Positions 4,301-62,800 of a stretch of DNA of 64,000 nt are shown here, piece by piece (positions within the stretch are counted from its first letter, which is position 1; every line of letters begins with the position of its first letter). Below the pieces are notes generated by a model. The model searched no databases and was not told the origin of the DNA. It was given only the letters and a program-made list of their open reading frames with translations. A program made the position numbers and the translations under genes. Source of the DNA: Bryopsis sp. KO-2023 (Eukaryota > Chlorophyta > Ulvophyceae > Bryopsidales > Bryopsidaceae); NCBI GenBank assembly GCA_030272585.1, contig BSYQ01000006.1, positions 3,249,001 to 3,313,000 on the forward strand. The letters are read 5' to 3'.

Positions 4301-5620
4301 TTTTTTTCAAGGGGTGGTTCTAGAAAACGGGGTTTTTTTAAATATGGGATGGGGGGTGGGGGGGTGTTAATATGTATGCATTGAAGGACAATACCCTGGA
4401 AAACCGTTGTGGTTTTCCTGGGATCCAGAAATCGAAATTCTCGATTTCGGATTTGGGATTAAAAAAAAGAAAAAAGAAAAAAAAGGGACACAGAAAATGG
4501 CACTCTCTTTTTTTCTTACTGGAACTTTTTTTTTTTAATTTGAATGGCTGGTTATTCGTTTTTTAGTAATTTTTGTCAAATTCTTTGGCATTCCGTTCTG
4601 GAGTAAAAAAAAGTGGGGAAAGGGGAAAAGGACAGTTATACATGTACATATACATAAAAAAGAAAAGAAAGAAAAAAAAGGGGGTTTTGGAAAGCTGTGG
4701 TTTTGTAATTCGATGTATTGGAATTATTCTGGGTTGCTAGTGTTTTGGGGGGTTGCTTTTAAGCTTTTTCTTCCCAACCTTTTTTTTTCCTCCTGAAATA
4801 TCCTTGAATTCAGGGGTGTTCTTTTTCTTTTTTTTTCATTGATGGATGTATCTGTTCCTTTTTTTTTCGTATTTAAAAAAAGGAATCAGTAAAGTGGTTT
4901 TCATTTTCTTTGCCTTGACGGATTGAAGGGCAACCTTTTCATGGGGGAAAAAAAACTTCACGGCAAATGTCTTTTTAAGGTCTTTTTGTTAATGGGGAGC
5001 GGGAAAAAGGGAAATTTCACGAAGTTTTATTTTTTCTTGTAGGGCACATTTCATATAACTGTGTTGCTGAGAAAAATATTTATATATTTTTTTTTCTTCT
5101 GGTGGCTGGTGTGCTGGCCTTCTCAATTTTTTTTCTAAATTGACTCGCTTGTATGCACAAAAATTATATTTTTTTTCAAGAAAAGGGTTTTGAAAGAAAG
5201 CCAGAGATGAATGGCAGATAAATACTCTGTCCTCAACTTTGGGATTGGGAGAAAACTTTTTGGAATTGTGAATTATCGCGGAGTCGGAAAGATTTCAAGC
5301 TGCCCACATCCTTTCCAATTCCAATTTGTATGTATCGTCGATCAGCTCCCTCCTCCGACTTAACGCCACCCATTACACCACACAAGAGTTAAAAGAGCTC
5401 CCCGAGCTGGGCTGCAAAATCTATCGTGGGAAGGACCTGCCAGCACAATGTGTGTCGAACCTCATCTGCATTTTAAAAATCAAAAATGTGTTTTTCTTTC
5501 AACACAATTGAAAAAAAAGATCATTTTTTTTTGTTTTTGAATTTGCAGTGTGGTTAGAGATTCCGGTTGAGAAAATCTGGCGGATCGTCGCTGCAGCCCA
5601 GAGCTTTTGCTTCTGGAGTG
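1371..5620. other. Gene-free, homopolymer-rich tract
   Basis: About 4.2 kb downstream of the protease stop. It is full of runs of A, T, G and C, including a C run near 2491-2510 and G runs near 3842-3858, and has only short random reading frames. It should hold the protease 3' UTR and the PET117 promoter and 5' UTR. A stretch at about 5300-5470 is less biased in composition and could be a 5' UTR exon of PET117, with an acceptor-like TTTGCAG at 5543-5549. I see no protein-coding signal. Confidence 0.6.
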
Positions 5621-6400
5621 ATGGTGTCTCGCGCTGCAATCACCCTTGGTGTGGTTTCAGGTATCACTCTTGGGACTATTTTGGTGATACACTGGACGCA
5701 AGATTGGGAGAAGGAGGTGAGGCCGATCGAGCAGCGAGCAGTGTTCGTTAAACCACCTTCTTCTTTCGAGACTCTCACGACGGGTCCCGAACTTACGCCA
5801 GTTTTGAATCGTGTTCCAAGGCGTAGTAATGGGAAAGCTTGTGAATATCAGTGCTCTTGAGATATTTGCTTGATCGCATCTTTCGTGGGATTCTTTTCGG
5901 GTGGGAGACGACGACGTGTGGAACCTTATCTTTTCGACGGGCAGCGAGTTTCTGCTGACACTCGTCTAGGGTTTTTCATTTATTTGATGGGATCCGAACG
6001 GCAGAACCCCCAAAAAACAGCTGTATAGAAAGTTTTTAAAAGGAGCTTTCCCAGTCAAATATATATATATATGTATATTTATATCTACTATTTTATCAAA
6101 TGCAAAAAAATATGGGAAGTGGAGGGAGGAGAGGGGGGGGGATTTTGTAAACCGATTCTAAAAGTGTTTTTTCGTGCTTGAAAAAAAACCCTCAATGAAG
6201 CATTTTGTATATTTTTGTATTTTCTTCATTGAGTTCAGGAGGAATCCTGCCAGTTTGTGGATGTTCTGTCCGAATTGCCGACAAAATAACACTCTTCTGC
6301 CGTAATTGTTTTGCAGAGATTGTACAAGGGAGTGATCAGGGATAAGGAGCTGTATGCAATCAAGCTCGAACAGTTCAAATCTAAGCAATCCGAGCAGTAG
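5621..6400 (+). CDS. PET117: PET117-like cytochrome c oxidase assembly protein
   Basis: Exons 5621-5716 and 6317-6400 give a 59-residue protein. It has an N-terminal hydrophobic segment (about residues 5-24), then WTQDWEKERLYKGVIRDKE, which matches the PET117 core where a helix is followed by GVIRD. PET117 is a small inner-membrane mitochondrial protein that couples heme a synthesis to cytochrome oxidase assembly. The joint GAG|gtgagg to TTTTGCAG|AGA is phase 0. The first ATG of the frame is at 5621; the frame is open upstream without another ATG. The length is at the short end for the family. The call rests on the family pattern only. Confidence 0.8.
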
Positions 6401-27401: not shown

Positions 27402-27754
27402 TAATTTGGATGGTTTAAAACTCCTTCGATTTAGGCCCCATATTCAGTGAATCCCCCCTTGTTGGATTCAGTCTGATGACAAAAAACCACAGTAACAAGC
27501 AGCAGGGGTTCTGTGCCTTCTGGGGTTATTGGAGACCAAGAGTGGTGGTTTACGAAGGCTCCTCTTTCTCCTGCAATGTAATTTCATGTTTGCTCGAAAA
27601 ACTTTTCCTAACGCTCTTTAAAAACCACACCGCTTGCCACGATATCGCATCCATCGACATTGTCGACCGACCGCGCTGTGGAGAAGTAGGTCTGCCACTT
27701 AAAGGCGTCAAAACGTCGGGAGGGGTGCGGAGAGAATCAGAGGAGGCCAACACG
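27402..27754. promoter_or_regulatory. Divergent promoter region between XDH and the GATA/TFIIS-N gene
   Basis: The two genes start 353 bp apart and point away from each other. No core element is obvious. If the upstream ATG at 27476 is used for the GATA gene, the shared region shrinks to 74 bp, which argues for the ATG at 27755. Confidence 0.4.
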
Positions 27755-29188
27755 ATGACGGGGGAAGCGATGCCCATCTACTGCGGCTCCACCAAAGCCA
27801 CGAAGAATTATTGCGGGATGTGCGGGACCGACGCAACCAGGGGCGTTTGGCGGAGGGGCTGGTCTTTGAATCCAGCGGGGGACAAGCACGTGAATCTCTG
27901 CAACGCCTGCGGTCTGAAGTTCAAGGGAGGGAAAACGAAACGAATCGCAAAACAGAGAAGCGTCCACAAGAGCAACACCGAAGCCCAGACGTCCGCCAAG
28001 AAAAAGCCGGGAAATGCGTCGAAAAAAAGCGTCAATGCCAGAAACCCGCCATCACCACCACCACCACCGCAGCAAGAAAAACGGAAAGAGAAGCAAGAGA
28101 AAAAACCGGAGAAGAACGAGAAAACGGTCAAGAAGCCGGGGAACAAGCGCGGAGGCAAGACGCTCCCTTTCGTGAGTTATACTCTAGAGCGCAGGCCGCA
28201 GCCCGACAAACCGGAGCATTTGTCGGCATATTTCTACGTCCAGGATGCGAAAGGAAAGTCTAAATTGGCGGTCATCGGAACCAACACTGGTTCCTACCAC
28301 TTCGTTTACGTTTCGCAAGACTTGGGCAAAGGGATCCCCAGCCTGAGGTGCACGAACAGAAGCAAAGTGGTGGAATGGCTGAACAGCATCGGAGCCACGG
28401 AGCAGATTGACGAAAGTGGGGAGACGGTGCCAGATGGATGTCGTCCGCTGGAGAAAAAGGCCAAGATCGAAAAAACGTCCAAAACCGATGCCCGGAAAGG
28501 CACTGGAGAGCGGGCAGGCAAAGCTGAGGAGGTTGCGAAAAGAGGGGGGGCCAAAAATGCCACCAAAAGCGTCGGGGTGAAGAGAAAGGCGTCGGGTGGG
28601 GGTGGAGCACAGACATCGAAAGCGTCGAGGAGGACCAGAACGGGTGGTGCTCACGACACGCAGGAAGCTGCTGGGGACTCCACCGAAACGAAAGCTCTGG
28701 CAGATTTTATCGACAGGCAGGCAAAAGAGGAGGACGTCGCGAGATTCAGGTAAGGGGTCAAGTCACCCATCGTCTGAGAAACTCCAGCTGGACAACTCAG
28801 CTCCTCATCGATCGAAATTTCCTTCCCAGTTTTTTCAGTTATATTTTCCCTTGACACACAAACACACACACACAAGAATATTACATGGCTGTCATTTTTC
28901 CACAGGATTTGGGCTGAAAAATTGGACAACACAATCATGTACAACTGCGACACCACCGACCCCATGTGCACCACTCGAAAAGAAATCGTCAAAATCCTCC
29001 TGGCGTTGGAGGTCCATCCGATTTGCCTGTCTCTCCTAGAAGCAGCCCCGTTGCCAAAAAGAATAGCAAAATTGATTCGACACGAAAACAAGAAAATTTC
29101 GGCACTGGCCAGAAAGGTGAAAACAGACTGGATGTCGACGTCAAAAGCAGCCCTGGCACTCGCCAAACAAAGAAAGAAGCATAGGTAA
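27755..29188 (+). CDS. GATA-like zinc finger protein with C-terminal TFIIS-N (LW) domain
   Basis: Exons 27755-28749 and 28906-29188 encode 425 residues (518 if the in-frame ATG at 27476 is used). Residues about 22-55 form a GATA-type finger, CGMC...VWRRGW...LCNACGLKF, but with a longer loop between Cys pairs (25 residues instead of 17-20). A long Lys/Pro/Glu-rich linker follows, then a compact segment around SAYFYVQDAKGKSKLAVIG with strand-like pattern that I cannot name, and another basic linker. Exon 2 encodes a helical bundle, EIVKILLALEVHPICL to HENKKISALARKVKTDW, matching the TFIIS N-terminal domain of elongation factors. A nuclear role linking DNA or chromatin to transcription elongation is inferred. 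The end CATAG|gtaatg could also be a splice donor, so the C-terminus may continue. Confidence 0.75.
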
Positions 29189-53982: not shown

Positions 53983-55986
53983 TCAGAAACCACACACACA
54001 TTTGGTGCCAGAGGTGTGGCCAACGACACGAGGGCGGCTGACTGGAAGTACGAGTTTGTAGCCATTGGGGCATCTGAAAAGGAAAAAAAACCAACTTTTT
54101 GAGAATCTACTGTCAAGCTCACACCAATGGTATGCCACAAGGAGAAACTCTTTTTATTCCTCCCCCCCCCAAAAAAAAAATAAAATAAAAAAGAGGAGAG
54201 GGGGGGGGGTTCTACAATGAAAAGTCACTTATCCTGCTTTTATGGCAGAATTAAGATGTTTTATGTTGCACCATTCTTGCTGGAAAGAGTGTCTTTCAAG
54301 GAAGACGTTTTTTGACAGGAACTGATATTGGCAGACAAGCATGGCCTGCAACAATTGGACCCAGCTCAGATGTTCAGTACAACAAGAAATTTCAAGACCC
54401 ACCCGAAAAAGACTCTGTCGAAGCAGCAAATCTTGATGTTGCTTGGGCAAGGCAATAAAACATTGCTGCTTCCCTCCACCTCAGCAGTACACTTGGAAGT
54501 CGCAGAAAGCTCATTCTCTGTTGGATCACACCACCAACATATTTCAGCATTTGACTATTTACCATGCGACAGTCGACCCTGATAATTTCGCACACAAACG
54601 GCAGCAGCACTTCTGATGGCTAATAATCAACAGTTCTCCAACAAGCAGGATACAACAAGACATTCACTAATTTTAGCACACATGTGGCAATTCCCAGCAT
54701 CTCACTTCCGCAAACTTCTGCAGTTGCAAGAGCAAAAGCTCTGGCAATGGCAACGCTGACTGACTTCACAAATGCAGAGGAGAATTGTGTTGCACTTCCT
54801 CTGCCACTCACGCATGAGCTGTAGGAATGAGAAAAAAAAAAAAAAAGATTAGGAGGTAAGTGGAAAAACATTTCTTGATTTTCGGCCACCATGTATGAAA
54901 TTATGAGAAGCCAGCCCCTGCAAATCATTTTCATCTTGCAAATGGACAGCTTGCATGCTTTTTTGTCAAAAAAAAAAAAACGCCGGAAGGGGGGAGAGGA
55001 GTTGGACCTTTTAATAAAGGATGAGAGGAGATGGGCATACCTAGCCTGAGCACTTGCAGCAGCTTCTGCAATTGCTGTTGCGAGTGCCCTGATGTCAGCC
55101 AGACAGACACCAGAGTTGGGTCCCACAAAAGCGGCGGCGACACTCTTGGCAAATGCCTCAGCATAGCCCTGAGCAAATGAGCTTCCTTGGGACAGCGCGA
55201 AACCACAGCCAAAACCCTGTCCTGTGCACTTCACCTGCACCATGAACAATTTTGTATGTTGATCAAACAGTTACACAACCAGTTACGTTCTTGGCATAAC
55301 CAATAAGCAATCGCATAGGTTTCAATACCTGGGACAAGGCTTGCGTATGGACTGAAGCCACTGCAGTTGCCATGGCTCCAGCAGTCGACTGCACAACGAC
55401 AGGGCTGCAGAAATCCTGGGTGGACAGAGCCCTCACTTGCTCATCAATCTGACTGGTTGCACTAGCGTGGGCCTGGACACAGAAAAAAGTGAAACACAGT
55501 GAGGGACAAAGTATGTGGAAGAAATACATACCATGGCAAGGAGAATCAAAATAGATCCAGACGTGCAAAATTAACAAACAAACATGTTGGCGACGCAAGC
55601 ATTAAAAGCATAGTACCGTGCATGAAGCCGCCGCCCTTCCTCTGCACCTTCCAGATTTCACGCGGATCGAAAGGGAGCCAAAAGCGCTGCACGAAGTCGA
55701 CGTGGTGAACCCTTTCACAAAGAGCAAGCAAAACAAACAAGAACTCAAGAAATCAACGTTACGATGCCTGGATGGGCACATCCCATCAGAAAAATTTGCC
55801 TGTTGGGACAGAGAACCGCGTTTCTTTCGGAGTTCGCTGAAAATCGATCGATCGATCGATCGGAGGGCTGCCAGACGACGCCCACCATCGCAGCACTGCA
55901 GCCCGCGGATACGATCAGCCCACGAACCCACCTTGTGCATGTGTGCCGATCAACCCAGCAAGGAGCAGGATAACTGTAAGGCTCAT
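53983..55986 (-). CDS. Secreted Ala/Ser-rich, Cys-containing protein (268 aa, 7 exons)
   Basis: Exons: 55986-55932, 55711-55617, 55472-55329, 55234-55041, 54818-54706, 54517-54403 and 54073-53983; they sum to 269 codons. It starts with a signal peptide (MSLTVILLLAGLIGTHAQ). The centre has Ala-rich amphipathic helices in loosely repeated blocks (SSFAQGYAEAFAKSVAAAFV, ATAIAEAAASAQA, FSSAFVKSVSVAIARAFALA), each ending near a Cys. The C-terminal 60 residues are Cys-rich (CTAEVEG, PCPSNIKICCF, CPNGYKLVLP, TKCVCGF). It looks like a structural extracellular protein. The Ala/Ser helices superficially recall silk and egg-case proteins of animals, but this is probably convergence. The acceptor of exon 2 is weak. 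No family is recognised. Confidence 0.68.
55843..55861. repeat. (ATCG)n microsatellite
   Basis: Four to five perfect ATCG units in the first intron of the secreted Ala/Cys-rich gene. Self-complementary. Confidence 0.85.
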
Positions 55987-57211
55987 GGTGGCGTCGAGTG
56001 GATCGAGAGTGGGAGTTGAGAAAGGAGCGAAGTTTCAACGCTGCGGTGTGGTATTGATATTTGAGTTCGTGTGGGGGTGGCAAAGCGTACAGCCAGCAGT
56101 TCGCACAGGGGCAGTCGCAATCACGAGGAAACCCAAGTCCCATCTCGACACGCTTGCGACATCAACCCTGTACATTTCGCGTCATGCCGAACAAACATCC
56201 TTGTGAGGCCTTGGCCAACGAACAAACCGGTTTTATTGTGTTGGTCGGAACGAGATGCGTTTGGGCTATATCCACTCACGGCATCTTCGCATGAATTTTG
56301 CTTGTCTGTTTGTATTCACTCACGAACGGGAAACACATTCATACAATTGCCCAGAACGAAGTCCATGGTGCAACATCCACAGGGATTAAAAAGCCTTCAG
56401 CCCTCGATAATCACCACCATACTCTATTGAGTAGCTAGGTAGCTTTAGGTATTTTCTCACATTTTTTACAGATACTCCAGGAAATTTAAAGGGTTTTCCC
56501 ACTGAACCTTAGCAGTCATTCTTTCCCCCCTTGTCTTAACTCCAGCAGATGATATGAATCCTTTTCTTTTAGATTTCTGTTCCGTTCGAGTACAAAACAT
56601 CCCGCGCCATATATGTCCCATGAAGAAATAAAAATCAAAAGCTCAGGTAGCCTGGAAAGGGAGGGATCCAGGGTGGGGAAAAGAGCAAACAATAAGCTGA
56701 GCCTCCGCTGACTAGAATATCCCCCAAAGGCTGGCTGTCCAATATACTCAACCACTCACAACCATTGTATTATATGACCCACCATGACCTAGTCATCAGC
56801 TTTGAACCTTCCATATCAAAGATACTCCCAGTTTGATCAACTTCGGGAATCTTTGAAGTGCTGTTCCCCCAGGGTGCCATATGGGAGAATGTGGGCTTCA
56901 AAAGACCATAGCCTTTTTCGATAAGTGATGTCAGGACATTTTTGAGTGTTGAAAGGTGAAATTTGTTTAGGAGTTCTTTTAGTGTTGATTAACGATCAAA
57001 ACACCGCCCCAAATAAGCAGAATCATGAAATCACCTCCAAATTTTTTGTCGTTCACCAAAGACGTCCGGCACGTTTTAGCGCTAAGTTGGTGTTGTTACA
57101 CTCTATCATGATTGCAATAAAACACCATCGTCTCAAAAAAAGGACCGGTTTTCCTCATTTTCAGAGAACTACCCCCCGTGCTCTATACAAACTATCGAAA
57201 CACGCATTTTG
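55987..57211. other. Spacer between the secreted-protein gene and REX1-B
   Basis: Contains the promoter of the secreted-protein gene on one side and the REX1-B 3' UTR on the other. Several short frames at 55.9-56.4 kb have no support. No gene seen. Confidence 0.45.
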
Positions 57212-58233
57212 TCAAGATCCCTCTGCATCCCCCTCCTCAAAATCAACCCGTGCATATCGGATTTCCTCCAATACTTCATTGATACGGTTGATGGCAGAGT
57301 CCAGCATATGAGTGGCCTCCCCCACAGCCCCATCATAATCCCATCTGCTTGGTTCCCCTCCTTCACCCCCATCCACTCTATTAATATCCACTGAACCATT
57401 CTCCAAGTTGATAAAAGAAATTCCGGATGTCACATCCGACACTCCTGGGGCTCCATGTGCATGTTGATGTGTGTGAGGGTCAGCTCCAAGGACGGATGGG
57501 GGAGGTTCTAACTGCTGCCATGAGAATTTTTCGACCTCATACACCCTTCGAAGGGATTGCAAAGCCATGGTTGCCTTCAGTTTCGAACGCTCACCTTCTT
57601 GCACCGACCGGAGCAAGTCGGCCAGCTCGCCAGCGTTTGGGGTTTCACGGAGAACCTGCAAAGGGCAATCTGAAAAACTGTGACACCGCATCATTTCAGT
57701 GGTCGAAAACAAAATAAGAGGGCATATTTATTAACTTCAGTGAGGATGGTGTGAATAGGATATTGACCGCTGGCCTCCCATCAAATTATGTCATAATTTT
57801 TTGGTACATCTCATGTGAAAAAGTGAGTCGGCAACTTGCAACCCATCGACCTCCTTTTTGGGGGGGGTAAAGAAACCTAACTGTTCAGTGCAATGCAGTT
57901 TCCTTTTTCAAAAGCGACGAGGCAATGGTGGAGAACACGACTGATCGAACTCAATTACATTGAACTCCAAACAACAACATTTATAACATTAACATTCTTA
58001 ACCACCTTTTCGATTCGAATGACTTCTTGGGAGCATTTCTTGAAAACTTGTGTCGCATCTGCCATTGATTTGACAAACGGGGCTTCATCTTTGGATTTCA
58101 AAAAGTCTCGGAAACCCTCATGTAACAATGTGTAAGTTTCAGCTCGGGTGGATTGGATGTTCTGGAATTCTTCGAGCAAAGAGGTGATTTTGGGTGGAGG
58201 GTCCTGAGCCGAAACCCCATTCACCACAGCCAT
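57212..58233 (-). CDS. REX1-B: REX1-B-like DNA repair protein (second cistron of the REX1 locus)
   Basis: Exons 58233-58006 and 57655-57212 give 223 residues. The REX1-B domain is seen as LLEEFQNIQSTRAETYTLLHEGFRDFL, ADATQVFKKCSQEVIRIEK, then LRETPNAGELADLLRSVQEGERSKLKATMALQSLRR: three helical segments with the conserved LQ.GE..KL..T..LQ core. The rest is acidic and low in complexity with a final helix (AINRINEVLEEIRYARVDFEEGD). In Chlamydomonas, REX1-B is needed for excision of UV damage. The first ATG of the frame is at 58233. It follows the GTF2H5 frame on the same strand. Between the two stop/start sites lies an intron (about 58606-58260), so after splicing the spacer would be about 30 nt. 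Confidence 0.75.
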
Positions 58234-58259
58234 GGGAAAATGAGGGATGCTGTCACAAA

Positions 58260-58609
58260 CTGCATACCAAAACATTTTGAAGAAAGATCAACTCCTGTGG
58301 TAATATGCGAACCGCAACCAGGGCTTCCTTATTCTCTTCTTAAACATTATTCTGATCTGAAGGCGCCACACTTTGCCTTTCTATTGCCTGTTGTACGGAA
58401 AATAGAGGGAATTGACACGGTGATTTCTACGCAATTACATTCAAGTGCAAACACGACGCCACATATATTTCCACTTCTATTCGGAAAAAATCGGAAATCA
58501 AAATTACAGCCTCAATGGGGTCTTCCTTCAGAATTCACTGAATTTCCATGACTTCATCAAATAATTTTAATTTTAATTTTTTTTAATTTTTCTTCGCCTC
58601 AATACTCAC
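58260..58609 (-). other. Intercistronic intron of the REX1 locus
   Basis: Directly after the GTF2H5 TGA (58616-58614) comes GAAT and then a strong donor GTGAGT. The matching acceptor TTTTGGTATGCAG ends at about 58260, 26 bp before the REX1-B ATG. Splicing would join the two reading frames in one mRNA with a spacer of about 30 nt that contains no AUG. Confidence 0.65.
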
Positions 58610-58613
58610 ATTC

Positions 58614-59339
58614 TCAGTTGCCCTCCTTCCTTGGAGCCTGGAATGTATTTGCTTCTTGAAACTTTTTCAGTTCCGCGAGTATCCAATTCACAACACTGCT
58701 GTGGACGAACAACCGACTGTCTCCGAGATCTGCAATGATGAATTTTTCCCTGATTTCACCCCACACAATTTTACTAAAAAATAATTTTCAAAATTGTGCC
58801 ATTGTCTGTGGACACTAATCTGTATTTTTTTTATTAACCTTTCATTTATCACAGCCGATGATGCACAGTAAATAATATTACGAATAAATAATTAATAATA
58901 TTATTATGGAGGATCTTTCCTTGCCTCCAGTTAAGGAGGCAAGGAAAGATTTGTTTCAAGTCCACAGGAAAAGTGTTTCAACCCCGCTAGTGGTCACTGG
59001 AATTGCAGTCCCCCCCATAAACAGATTGATTCGCAGTGAAGATTTAAACAATCTTCACAAATCAAATCAATCTTCCATACTCACAAGCAGACTGGGACTC
59101 GTAAATATAACCACACTTAAACAACACACGGCAGAAATCCCGTCGCGAAAAACACCACTCACCAGCGGCGTTGGTCGTTAAGGTGTAGGATGAACTCCTT
59201 TGTGGGTGCGTCGCTGCAACAAAAATATTCCCAGGAAAGTCAACGACGAGATCACCAAGGAAAAGCGAAAAAAAGCAAGAACGAAGGGCTCCTTCGGTTC
59301 GCACCACTCGAGATAAACACCCTTCACAGCGGAAACCAT
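58614..59339 (-). CDS. GTF2H5: TFIIH subunit GTF2H5/TTDA/Tfb5 (REX1-S), first cistron
   Basis: Exons 59339-59248 and 58773-58614 give 83 residues. The start MVSAVKGVYLEWCEPKEPFVL matches the family start [21 protein letters not shown] in register, and exon 2 gives REKFIIADLGDSRLFVHSSVVNW, matching [20 protein letters not shown]. The human protein has 71 residues. GTF2H5 stabilises the TFIIH core and is needed for nucleotide excision repair; it is REX1-S in Chlamydomonas. The exon 1 donor (TC|gtcgtt) was chosen by phase and is not a strong site; the alternative TTG|gtgatc does not keep frame with exon 2. No AUG other than the start occurs in the spliced frame. Confidence 0.8.
58913..58950. repeat. 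Perfect 16-bp hairpin with 6-nt loop in the GTF2H5 intron
   Basis: ATCTTTCCTTGCCTCC (58913-58928), loop AGTTAA, then the exact reverse complement to 58950. It lies in the intron between the two GTF2H5 exons, about 140 bp upstream (in gene sense, downstream) of the acceptor. It could form a stable stem in the pre-mRNA. Confidence 0.9.
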
Positions 59340-59822
59340 TCGGGGGGCGGACTGGGCAGCAGATTCTGTCAAAGCTTCCCCCTGACCCCTGCACTTTACG
59401 CAACGCCTACGAAATGGTAGACAACGCAGAGCTGATTCATAGATCGTATCCTGGAGCACGTGGGAAATGATTTTGCTCAGGAGTTGCTGGCTTCCACGTA
59501 AGGTCGTACGGACTGCAAAGCAAGCAGCGCCACCTTGCCAAAAGCTTTGTCAAGAGAGAACCATACTCCCTGCGCCCGAGGGCGCGGATCGACGTCACAG
59601 GGAGGCAATTCAGGAAGAGAGTTTGTGCGACAGTGCAGCGAGACGCGTGGCAAATGGCGATCCCGGCGCAGGCGGCCCCACGAGGTGCCAGAAGGGATGA
59701 TGTCGGAGTTGCCGATCTCAATCGAAGGTTTTCCAGGGCTATAATCAACTACAACGCCGAGCTGTCGGGCTCCAAGTCGGGTTCCCTCGTTCAGGTGGGC
59801 ATGAGGAGGACGAGGTGGAATT
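59340..59822. promoter_or_regulatory. Divergent region between GTF2H5 and the NLP gene
   Basis: The two genes point away from each other. The sequence is GC-richer than other spacers and may include the untranslated or first coding exon of the NLP gene, whose start I could not fix. Confidence 0.35.
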
Positions 59823-62800
59823 TTGATGGTGACACACGCTGGGTTGCCTTCCATGCGAGCCTCTGTTATCGCTGAAATTCGCTGGCGTGTTTTGCTCGGG
59901 CAGGTTTGGCAGCCTGAGATAGACTGCAGTGGGGTTGTGATGCTCGTCACACAGGTGGGTTTCCTGGCGTCGCGCTCAGTTTTTTGCACGTCTTTTCGCG
60001 GGTTTCCTGGAGTGGGTTGGACCACATGAGTGACAAAAAAACCTAAATGCTCGAAATGCGCACTCTGCACAGGGCCTGCCGTTTTCGATATCTGGTGTGG
60101 GCGACCTTCTGGCCTTGTTCCGTTGCATATCTTGCAAGTATCGTTTCTCGACGGACGGTTCGAAGCCGGAAACGATGGGAGCGGTTGGCCGGGCATTTGC
60201 GGAGTGCCAGGTACTCCTGCTTTCCACAAATCCCACCACTTTGTTTTGTCGTTGCTCGACGAGGGTGCCCCCGCCTGTTTTTTTTGTCTTTTCTCTTTTG
60301 TCTCAGGCACTTTTTGATTAACTTGACCTGCAATAAGTCCATCAAAACAACTGCCTTGCAACATGCATGCATGAAATTCCCTGGAACCACCACGCCACAT
60401 AACCAAAAACAATTACGTTCCCTTCCTTAAAAAAGAAATGCTTTGAAATGGGCTTGGGCCATCAGGTGGAAATGTGTTCGGATGTACAAAAGCATGGCAA
60501 GTCGACGTTTCTTAGAGTAGACGAGGCTCAGAGATGCAGCGTTCACTCGACCGTGGTGCTCCCAGTGTTCATGAGTGAAAACCCTGGCAAACCTGTGGCT
60601 GTCATCGAGATTTCGCACCATGAAAAGGATGTCCAGTTTGCCACGATCATCAGCCGAATGGATGAATGCTTGAAGGCAAGAAGGCGATCCCCTCATCAAT
60701 TTTGCTAAAATTGGACTTTTTTTTCCCTCAAGCACTCGGTTTTTGAAAGACTTACCCTCCCACCCCTCCCCCCCCCAAAAAAAAAAAAAAAAAAAACACC
60801 CAAAAAACATAGAAATATAGATCTGAATGGATGTGAGGACGTGATTTGTTTAGCGTGTGGACAATAATTCATCATAATTCCAACCCCCAGCATGAATCAT
60901 TTTCTCGCAACAAAACAATGCTCAACATCAAGCTTGAGGTTCCTAGAAAATCCTAGAAAATAAGTGAGAAACCCCAAATCTCTGTTTCACAGACATGCCT
61001 TGTTCTGGTGGTTTGTAACCGGCATCTGGTGCTGATCCAATGTGCAGGAAGAGAATCTCTCGACCATGGATGTTGGGAACATAGATGGACTTTTGGGGGA
61101 TGGCATAGGAGTTCGCTATCAAATCTACGGACCAGGGCGGGCCCTCGTGACAGCAGCCAATGCATTCACTGCTGTTGAGGCGGGAAACGCTGTGCTGGAA
61201 AGAACGGAAATGCCACCCTCCCCCTCGGTATCTGCTGGCTATGATTCTGGTAAAATGGGGGAAAAAGTCTACTTAGATTTGTGGATCTCGTTTGAAATGT
61301 ACGAAATCGAGGCCCCATGTGGGCCGTCAACTGTGCAAATATTTATCAATGAGTGCTGATGGGACTAAGCCACCACTGGTTCATTTGGAAAAAGATGAGG
61401 GTCCCAGGCCTGTAATGGAAATTTACCTTTGCTAAATCTGTTTTGCTTTCAATTTCACACTTTTGAAATGTATTGTATTTTCGCTTGGGAGGAAGGATGG
61501 GAGTTTACATTCCATATGTATCTGTTTGCAACAGGAAGCCTTGGAGTACTAGGAGACCTGGAGCCACGAACAATGGGGACTTCGAGAAATCCTGTGGTGG
61601 TTTCCATGCCAGAAGTGAATGGGTTGGTCCCCACAATGGTGGTTAATTCAGCTCCTATGGTCCATGCCGAAAGGTTTGTTTTTTTTGTCCCACCAGGAAA
61701 TTAATTTCTGTGACGACAATTGATGATGGGGGAACGTGCTTTTGTCGCAAAACTGGACCATCAAATAAAATCTAGAGTCAGTTTTTCCTCATCGTCAATT
61801 GATATTTCCACTTGCCAGTCATGGAAAATGCATCTTTTACGTCCAGTCGAGTCAATTCTCAAATGTCGACGATCTCACCAAAGACACCTTTTTTTTTCTA
61901 AGCGATGCACCACTTGGCTTGTTATTCTTTGAAATCCTCTCGTCCTCCATCCAAAAAATTCTGTTTAAAAATTATGGTGCAGTGTGCAAGCAATGGCTCC
62001 CCCCCATCCGACTCCCCTCATTTCCCCTCAGCCCCCTCCCGTGAACGCGGACCCATCCAATCAGTATCGTCCCGATATCGAGGTGAAGGGCCTGGATACC
62101 GAGATGGACTGCAAGGAGGAAGATTGGGGTGAGGGCACTAATGAGGGCTTCTGTGGAGGCGATGCACAGGCCGAGATGGAGGGGACCTCGGTGCTGTTGG
62201 GATCGGTGAGTTCTGAGATTTCGGCGGACTCGGGTGGGCTGGATGGCGTGGACAGCAGCACGTCGACCAAAAAGCATGATAATAGGCTTGGTGGTGGTGC
62301 GGGCAAGAGGCTGACATACAAAGATTTGCAGGTAGGGAGAGAATGATGGGGTTAACTTGTATGGCTATTCCTTTTGTGGGTTTTTTGGTTTTTTTTGGGG
62401 GGAAAGGGTGCATGCAATAACTTTTTGAACCCACGTCCGAAAGGAAAAAAAAAGGAAAGTAGGATTTTTTTTTTTTAGTGATACTCCCAGAAGATTATAT
62501 GAAATGTCCATCATGGTACGCTCCAAAATTATTTGAGGAGCTTCCCTGGATGTCGAAATTTCCGACACCGACCAGAATAGAAAGCCCCCTGGACAAATGA
62601 AGCAACGGCATTTGACTTTTTTTTCGGTGCTGTGACAGGCTCAGTTTGCGGTTGGATTAAAAGAGGCGGCGACACGGCTTGGCATTTGTCCCACCACGTT
62701 GAAAAGAGCCTGTCGGCGGAATGGGATATCCAGGTGGCCGTCTCGCCAAATTGCAAAGCTCAACAAAGCATGGAGCCAGATGGGGTATAGCGGGTCACCC

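What the first reader, a model, noticed from the sequence alone, without database searches (positions are those of the whole stretch)
57212..59339. Dicistronic REX1 locus: GTF2H5 (REX1-S) followed by REX1-B with a spliced 30-nt spacer
GTF2H5 and REX1-B lie in tandem on the minus strand. The genomic gap is 380 bp, but an intron (donor GTGAGT four bases after the GTF2H5 stop, acceptor TATGCAG) removes most of it, leaving about 30 nt between stop and next start. Neither the 252-nt GTF2H5 frame nor the spacer has any AUG besides the two starts, and the first AUG has a C at -3, a weak context. These features fit leaky scanning to the second frame. Chlamydomonas REX1 was described as encoding both proteins from one locus, so the arrangement may be ancient in the green lineage and under selection to stay coupled.
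Basis: partly seen in the sequence, partly recalled or inferred. Interest (0 to 1): 0.92.

Follow-up and report, generated by a model that had tools for sequence, protein, structure and literature searches.

The report
Two DNA-repair genes, one message
Two small DNA-repair genes sit head to tail in what looks like a green alga or plant and probably share one messenger RNA, an arrangement already described in green algae, here with a likely intron between the two reading frames.

Summary
On the minus strand, a 73-aa TFIIH subunit Tfb5/GTF2H5 (REX1-S; three exons, 59339-58614) is followed by a 223-aa REX1-B (two coding exons, 58233-57212); Pfam 1e-22 and 5.8e-26. The 380-bp gap carries an intron-like stretch, 58609-58260 (GTGAGT...TATGCAG). 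Removing it leaves a 30-nt spacer and destroys all eight ATGs of the gap. It also missed that the second AUG has C at -3 too, that the two frames are in register with one UGA between them, and that an in-frame AUG inside the intron (58275, A at -3) gives REX1-B a possible start of its own. AUG depletion beyond the protein's lack of methionine is marginal (P(0) 0.06-0.19). The arrangement is known: REX1S-REX1B is reported as bicistronic in Chlamydomonas and Auxenochlorella, and leaky scanning is the favoured mechanism for green-algal bicistrons (PMC11892635). This is most likely one more member, with an inter-ORF intron as its distinctive trait. No transcript data and no related eukaryote genome could be examined; the host lineage is unresolved.

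The parts
59305..59339 (-). Tfb5/GTF2H5 (REX1-S) exon 1, ATG at 59339, C at -3, G at +4
   Evidence: Pfam Tfb5 1e-22 on the joined product
59214..59304 (-). intron 1, 91 nt (GTGCGA...TTGCAG)
   Evidence: inferred from protein continuity
59163..59213 (-). Tfb5 exon 2
58750..59162 (-). intron 2, 413 nt (GTGAGT...AATCAG)
   Evidence: inferred from protein continuity
58610..58749 (-). exon 3: end of Tfb5, stop TGA 58616-58614, plus 4 nt of spacer
   Evidence: Tfb5 residues 1-68 align to the GTF2H5 chain 1-69 of 71
58260..58609 (-). inferred inter-ORF intron 3, 350 nt (GTGAGTAT...TATGCAG); holds seven ATGs and splits an eighth at the donor, so splicing would remove all eight ATGs of the gap
   Evidence: chance test
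58273..58275 (-). alternative ATG inside intron 3, in frame with REX1-B (A at -3), adding 14 residues: possible start of a separate REX1-B transcript or of an intron-retained form
58006..58259 (-). exon 4: 26 nt of spacer, then REX1-B ATG at 58233 (C at -3, G at +4)
   Evidence: Pfam DNA_repr_REX1B 5.8e-26 on the joined product
57656..58005 (-). intron 4, 350 nt (GTGGTT...TTGCAG)
   Evidence: inferred from protein continuity
57212..57655 (-). exon 5: rest of REX1-B, stop TGA at 57214-57212
57096..57100 (-). TGTAA 111 nt after the REX1-B stop, a candidate chlorophyte-type poly(A) signal
   Evidence: motif and its lineage limits from the abstract of PMC1868727

Best explanation
This is the REX1-S/REX1-B locus of a nuclear genome, most likely of the green lineage: one promoter upstream of 59339, one five-exon mRNA, two proteins. 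A 43S ribosome scanning from the cap meets AUG1 in a poor context (C at -3). Most ribosomes translate Tfb5; some pass it, meet no other AUG until 252 nt downstream because splicing of the inter-ORF intron has removed the eight AUGs of the gap, and start REX1-B at AUG2. Shown here: the two protein families, their order, an in-silico exon structure, and the absence of other AUGs between the two starts in the inferred spliced mRNA. Inferred: that intron 3 is spliced, that one mRNA carries both frames, and that leaky scanning (tested by others with two other green-algal bicistrons and with a reporter holding the A. protothecoides REX1 inter-ORF) delivers REX1-B.
For: Families. Gene structure and a 30-nt spacer free of AUG. 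The donor/acceptor arrangement is rare in shuffled gaps: 36 of 4000, or 21 of 4000 with tighter limits. Intron 3 (350 nt, 37% GC) resembles introns 2 (413 nt, 37%) and 4 (350 nt, 41%), less so intron 1 (91 nt, 46%). In the 400 nt upstream there are two ATGs, at 225 and 101 nt before ATG1, and both ORFs close before it, so a 5' UTR under about 100 nt would be AUG-free. Precedent: REX1S-REX1B bicistronic in C. reinhardtii and A. protothecoides; bicistron ORF 1 short, weakly started and AUG-depleted; mutational support for leaky scanning (PMC11892635, passages and sections 5 and 8; preprint PMC11291117, passages, abstract and the first third of Results).
Against: No transcript or ribosome data. 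AUG2 is as poor at -3 as AUG1. AUG depletion is marginal once the protein is held fixed (P(0) 0.064-0.186). An in-frame AUG with A at -3 inside intron 3 suits an independent REX1-B transcript. The gap contains two TGTAA and three AATAAA/ATTAAA matches, so a poly(A) site of Tfb5 there is not excluded. No relative was found to show conservation of the intron.
Confidence: 0.72

Rival explanations
1. Two ordinary neighbouring genes. Tfb5 ends with its own poly(A) site in the gap, and REX1-B starts from its own promoter inside 58609-58260, using the in-frame AUG at 58275 (14 extra residues) or the AUG at 58233.
For: AUG at 58275 is in frame, open and has A at -3; TGTAA and AATAAA/ATTAAA matches occur in the gap.
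Against: A GTGAGT donor 4 nt after the stop with an acceptor 26 nt before the start is rare in shuffled gaps; published loci with the same gene pair are bicistronic.
Confidence: 0.2
2. One mRNA, but REX1-B made by termination and reinitiation after Tfb5, 30 nt downstream of the stop.
For: Short AUG-free spacer; the authors of PMC11892635 say they cannot completely discount some reinitiation.
Against: A 73-codon first frame is long for reinitiation (general knowledge; the paper mentions a documented negative correlation with uORF length); the ORF 1 start mutations reported there point to leaky scanning.
Confidence: 0.05
3. Readthrough of the single UGA gives some Tfb5-REX1-B fusion, because both frames are in register in the inferred spliced mRNA and the 10-codon spacer is open.
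For: AUG1-AUG2 distance is 252 nt, a multiple of 3, and the spacer reads EFCDSIPHFP without a stop.
Against: Register plus an open 10-codon spacer is expected by chance about one time in five (own estimate); two polypeptides are described for the known C. reinhardtii locus.
Confidence: 0.03

Closest known systems
REX1 (REX1-S/REX1-B) locus of Chlamydomonas reinhardtii
   Same: The same pair of names and a bicistronic mRNA (PMC11892635 passages, citing Cenkci et al. 2003; the original paper is not held). That REX1-S is the Tfb5/GTF2H5 homologue is recalled.
   Different: Nothing could be compared at sequence level; whether an inter-ORF intron exists there was not seen.
REX1S_REX1B bicistron of Auxenochlorella protothecoides (UTEX250_A11.30960/30955)
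   Same: Same pair, short inter-ORF.
   Different: 14-nt inter-ORF there, 30 nt here after inferred splicing. The main texts held do not contain the word 'intron' (PMC11291117, PMC11892635); supplements were not searched.
Green-algal bicistronic loci read by leaky scanning (36 in C. reinhardtii, 43 in A. protothecoides)
   Same: Short ORF 1, short inter-ORF, poor ORF 1 start, no AUG between the starts.
   Different: ORF 2 start here is also poor at -3; one mRNA is not demonstrated.
CDC26-TTM3 bicistron of land plants and green algae
   Same: A short nuclear protein frame ahead of another one, with NMD discussed (passages of PMC11892635).
   Different: Unrelated proteins.

Membership tests
Tfb5/GTF2H5 (REX1-S) | Tfb5 domain over the whole short protein | tested here: met
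   Pfam PF06331 1e-22, profile positions 1-66 of 67; GTF2H5 chain 28jm_G E 4.7e-10
REX1-B | DNA_repr_REX1B domain | tested here: met
   Pfam PF14966 5.8e-26, profile positions 2-93 of 94
REX1S-REX1B bicistronic locus | both frames collinear, REX1-S first, short inter-ORF | tested here: met
   380 bp genomic, 30 nt after inferred splicing
REX1S-REX1B bicistronic locus | a single mRNA carries both frames | not testable with these tools
   no transcript data; splice signals only
leaky-scanning bicistron | weak ORF 1 start | tested here: met
   C at -3, though G at +4; the species' own consensus is unknown
leaky-scanning bicistron | ORF 2 start stronger than ORF 1 start | tested here: not met
   ATG2 also has C at -3 and G at +4. 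In print this is a tendency over loci, not a requirement of each
leaky-scanning bicistron | AUG depletion before ORF 2 | tested here: inconclusive
   0 internal AUG; P(0) 0.064, 0.068, 0.186 in three null models
leaky-scanning bicistron | ORF 2 output falls when the ORF 1 start is strengthened | not testable with these tools
   needs a reporter experiment
chlorophyte genome | UGUAA poly(A) signal | tested here: inconclusive
   TGTAA 9 against 3.2 expected in 500 nt after 8 chosen stops (6 of 8 have it), rank 4 of 1024 pentamers; at 300 nt 4 against 1.9, rank 87; antisense motif 4, upstream stretch 4

The most novel reading that the evidence does not exclude
The inter-ORF intron is a switch. 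Spliced, the mRNA presents no AUG between the two starts and yields Tfb5 plus REX1-B by leaky scanning. Retained, the eight AUGs of the gap block the normal REX1-B start and at most allow a REX1-B with 14 extra residues from AUG 58275. Splicing would then set the ratio of a TFIIH repair subunit to its partner, and translation of Tfb5, whose stop lies 258 nt before the exon 4/5 junction, would expose the mRNA to nonsense-mediated decay. If the host is a streptophyte, the bicistron would also predate the chlorophyte-streptophyte split.
Probability: 0.12. Interest if true: 0.6.

Novelty: new member of a known kind. Interest (0 to 1): 0.3.

Why it matters
REX1-S is a TFIIH subunit and REX1-B a repair protein, so one mRNA would fix their co-expression. 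Each further genome with the pair helps date the bicistron. The inter-ORF intron is the one feature not met in the texts read, and it offers a testable link between splicing and use of the second frame. Otherwise the finding agrees with a published arrangement.

Tried and rejected
Relatives: REX1-B and Tfb5 against viral contigs and REX1-B against prokaryote genome contigs gave 2, 6 and 45 pattern matches, none confirmed. No collection of eukaryote genomes is on hand, so synteny could not be tested. No whole genome is held for the window.

Lineage: an RWP-RK domain and the REX1 pair point to the green lineage; that RWP-RK is mainly of the green lineage is recalled. The methyltransferase exons match CARM1 chains best (3e-31), while a chain named PRMT 4.2 scores lower (9.2e-24), so that test does not by itself favour plants; closeness to plant PRMT4 is recalled only. 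TGTAA enrichment after stops hints at a chlorophyte but depends on the span chosen.

RNA structure of ORF1, spacer and the start of ORF2: z -0.20, 83 of 200 shuffles fold as well. A bacterial-type promoter scan of the gap was uninformative. Rfam (gathering threshold) and tRNA scans of the window: none. REX1-B against solved structures gave only weak matches, the best 'Uncharacterized protein C4H3.06' (E 0.06; that it is from S. pombe is recalled); no paper held under SPAC4H3.06. PMC5144980 was seen only as two reference-list passages. Structure prediction was not requested, because a spliced protein does not read letter for letter from the window, as that tool requires.

Full report
Observation. 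Reading the minus strand and joining exons by protein continuity gives a five-exon model: 59339-59305, 59213-59163, 58749-58610, 58259-58006 and 57655-57212; introns of 91, 413, 350 and 350 nt, all GT-AG. The first frame encodes 73 aa (222 nt with stop TGA 58616-58614), the second 223 aa (ATG 58233, stop 57214-57212). Pfam identifies Tfb5 (1e-22, profile positions 1-66 of 67) and DNA_repr_REX1B (5.8e-26, positions 2-93 of 94). Among solved structures a GTF2H5 chain is the best match of the first (4.7e-10; eight distinct sequences matched).

The gap. The 380-bp gap holds eight ATGs: seven inside intron 3 and one split by the donor. All go if the intron is spliced, which leaves 30 nt. In dinucleotide shuffles of the gap, 36 of 4000 show a donor, a YAG acceptor and an ATG-free spacer in a similar place, 21 of 4000 with tighter limits; the criteria were set after seeing the arrangement. 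Intron 3 has 37% GC, like introns 2 (37%) and 4 (41%) and unlike intron 1 (46%). This supports an intron but is not RNA evidence. The last gap ATG but one, 58275, is in frame with REX1-B, adds 14 residues and has A at -3, so a REX1-B gene with its own promoter remains possible. The gap also holds two TGTAA and three AATAAA/ATTAAA matches.

Start contexts and AUG depletion. No AUG lies between the starts. Under three null models the chance of none is 0.064, 0.068 and 0.186. Of overlapping windows from eight approximate coding segments (REX1-B included), 19 of 1638 (249 nt) and 44 of 1718 (219 nt) are also free of ATG. Much of the effect comes from the protein having no internal methionine. In the 400 nt upstream there are two ATGs, 225 and 101 nt before AUG1, with ORFs of 4 and 14 codons that end before it.

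Frames. AUG1 and AUG2 are in register and the 10-codon spacer is open, so one UGA separates a Tfb5-REX1-B fusion. By my estimate this happens by chance about one time in five; it is a rival to test, not a finding. The Tfb5 stop is 4 nt before the exon 3/4 junction and 258 nt before the exon 4/5 junction, a position from which translation of Tfb5 could trigger nonsense-mediated decay (general knowledge; PMC11892635 discusses NMD for CDC26-TTM3).

What is known. PMC11892635 (PNAS 2025; passages and sections 5 and 8) reports 36 and 43 high-confidence bicistronic loci in C. reinhardtii and A. protothecoides, AUG depletion before ORF 2, and in vivo tests with TOM22_Venus, OST4_Venus and a GFP_LUC reporter that holds the REX1 inter-ORF, which favour leaky scanning while not wholly discounting reinitiation. 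Its preprint PMC11291117 (passages, abstract, first third of Results) gives short ORF 1, short 5' UTR and weak ORF 1 start contexts. PMC11892635 states that the C. reinhardtii REX1S-REX1B locus produces a bicistronic mRNA, citing Cenkci et al. 2003 (not held; Gallaher et al. 2021, looked up by a recalled DOI, not held). In the section read, conservation was examined among chlorophytes only. The listings of searches for REX1-S/REX1-B, REX1 with dicistronic, GTF2H5 with REX1, bicistronic with streptophyte and leaky scanning, and REX1 with TTD-A/TFB5 showed no title or abstract start describing this locus in streptophytes; the papers listed were mostly not opened.

Lineage of the window. No genome is held. 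Among 40 ORF stretches chosen for a Pfam scan (one search had listed 654 of 55 aa or more), 19 families matched, among them xanthine dehydrogenase domains, DnaJ, UCH, PET117, Med26, F-box-like and WD40. There is a CARM1-type methyltransferase and an RWP-RK domain. These fit the green lineage but do not decide between chlorophyte and streptophyte; the methyltransferase scores higher with CARM1 chains than with the chain named PRMT 4.2. TGTAA, described as confined to late-branching Chlorophyta and absent from streptophytes (abstract of PMC1868727), is found 9 times in 500 nt after 8 stops that I chose, against 3.2 expected (rank 4 of 1024), but 4 against 1.9 (rank 87) at 300 nt; the antisense motif and the upstream stretch each give 4. 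I lean to a chlorophyte without claiming it.

Verdict. Most likely a further REX1-S/REX1-B bicistron read by leaky scanning, with an inter-ORF intron as the distinctive detail. It is a new member of a known kind, of modest interest unless the host proves to be a streptophyte or the intron proves regulatory.

Noticed in passing
window 59477-60400 (-): A 307-aa ORF on the same strand ends 137 nt upstream of the Tfb5 start; no Pfam match listed. An open frame this long (311 codons) arises in 1 of 1000 shuffles of 59341-60500, but its GC by codon position is nearly flat, so its status is unclear.
   Followed up: partly
window about 62305-62790 (+): RWP-RK domain exons of a transcription factor gene on the plus strand; Pfam 2.9e-22 on two joined exon pieces. 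The gene's extent was not worked out; it may run off the window end.
   Followed up: partly
window 54620-55270 (-): Alanine-rich ORF with AFAKS/AIA-like stretches and no Pfam match listed.
   Followed up: no
window 27419-29188 (+): An ORF with a GATA-finger-like match (24.8 bits, just under Pfam's cut-off of 26.8), followed on the same strand by an ORF that I take to be the Med26/TFIIS-type match (8.4e-4); perhaps one gene.
   Followed up: no
window 5558-5857 (+): ORF that I take to be the PET117-like match (E 0.00023 for one of 40 members).
   Followed up: no
window, 500 nt after 8 gene stops: TGTAA more frequent after stops (9 against 3.2 expected), a possible chlorophyte poly(A) signal; weaker at 300 nt.
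   Followed up: partly
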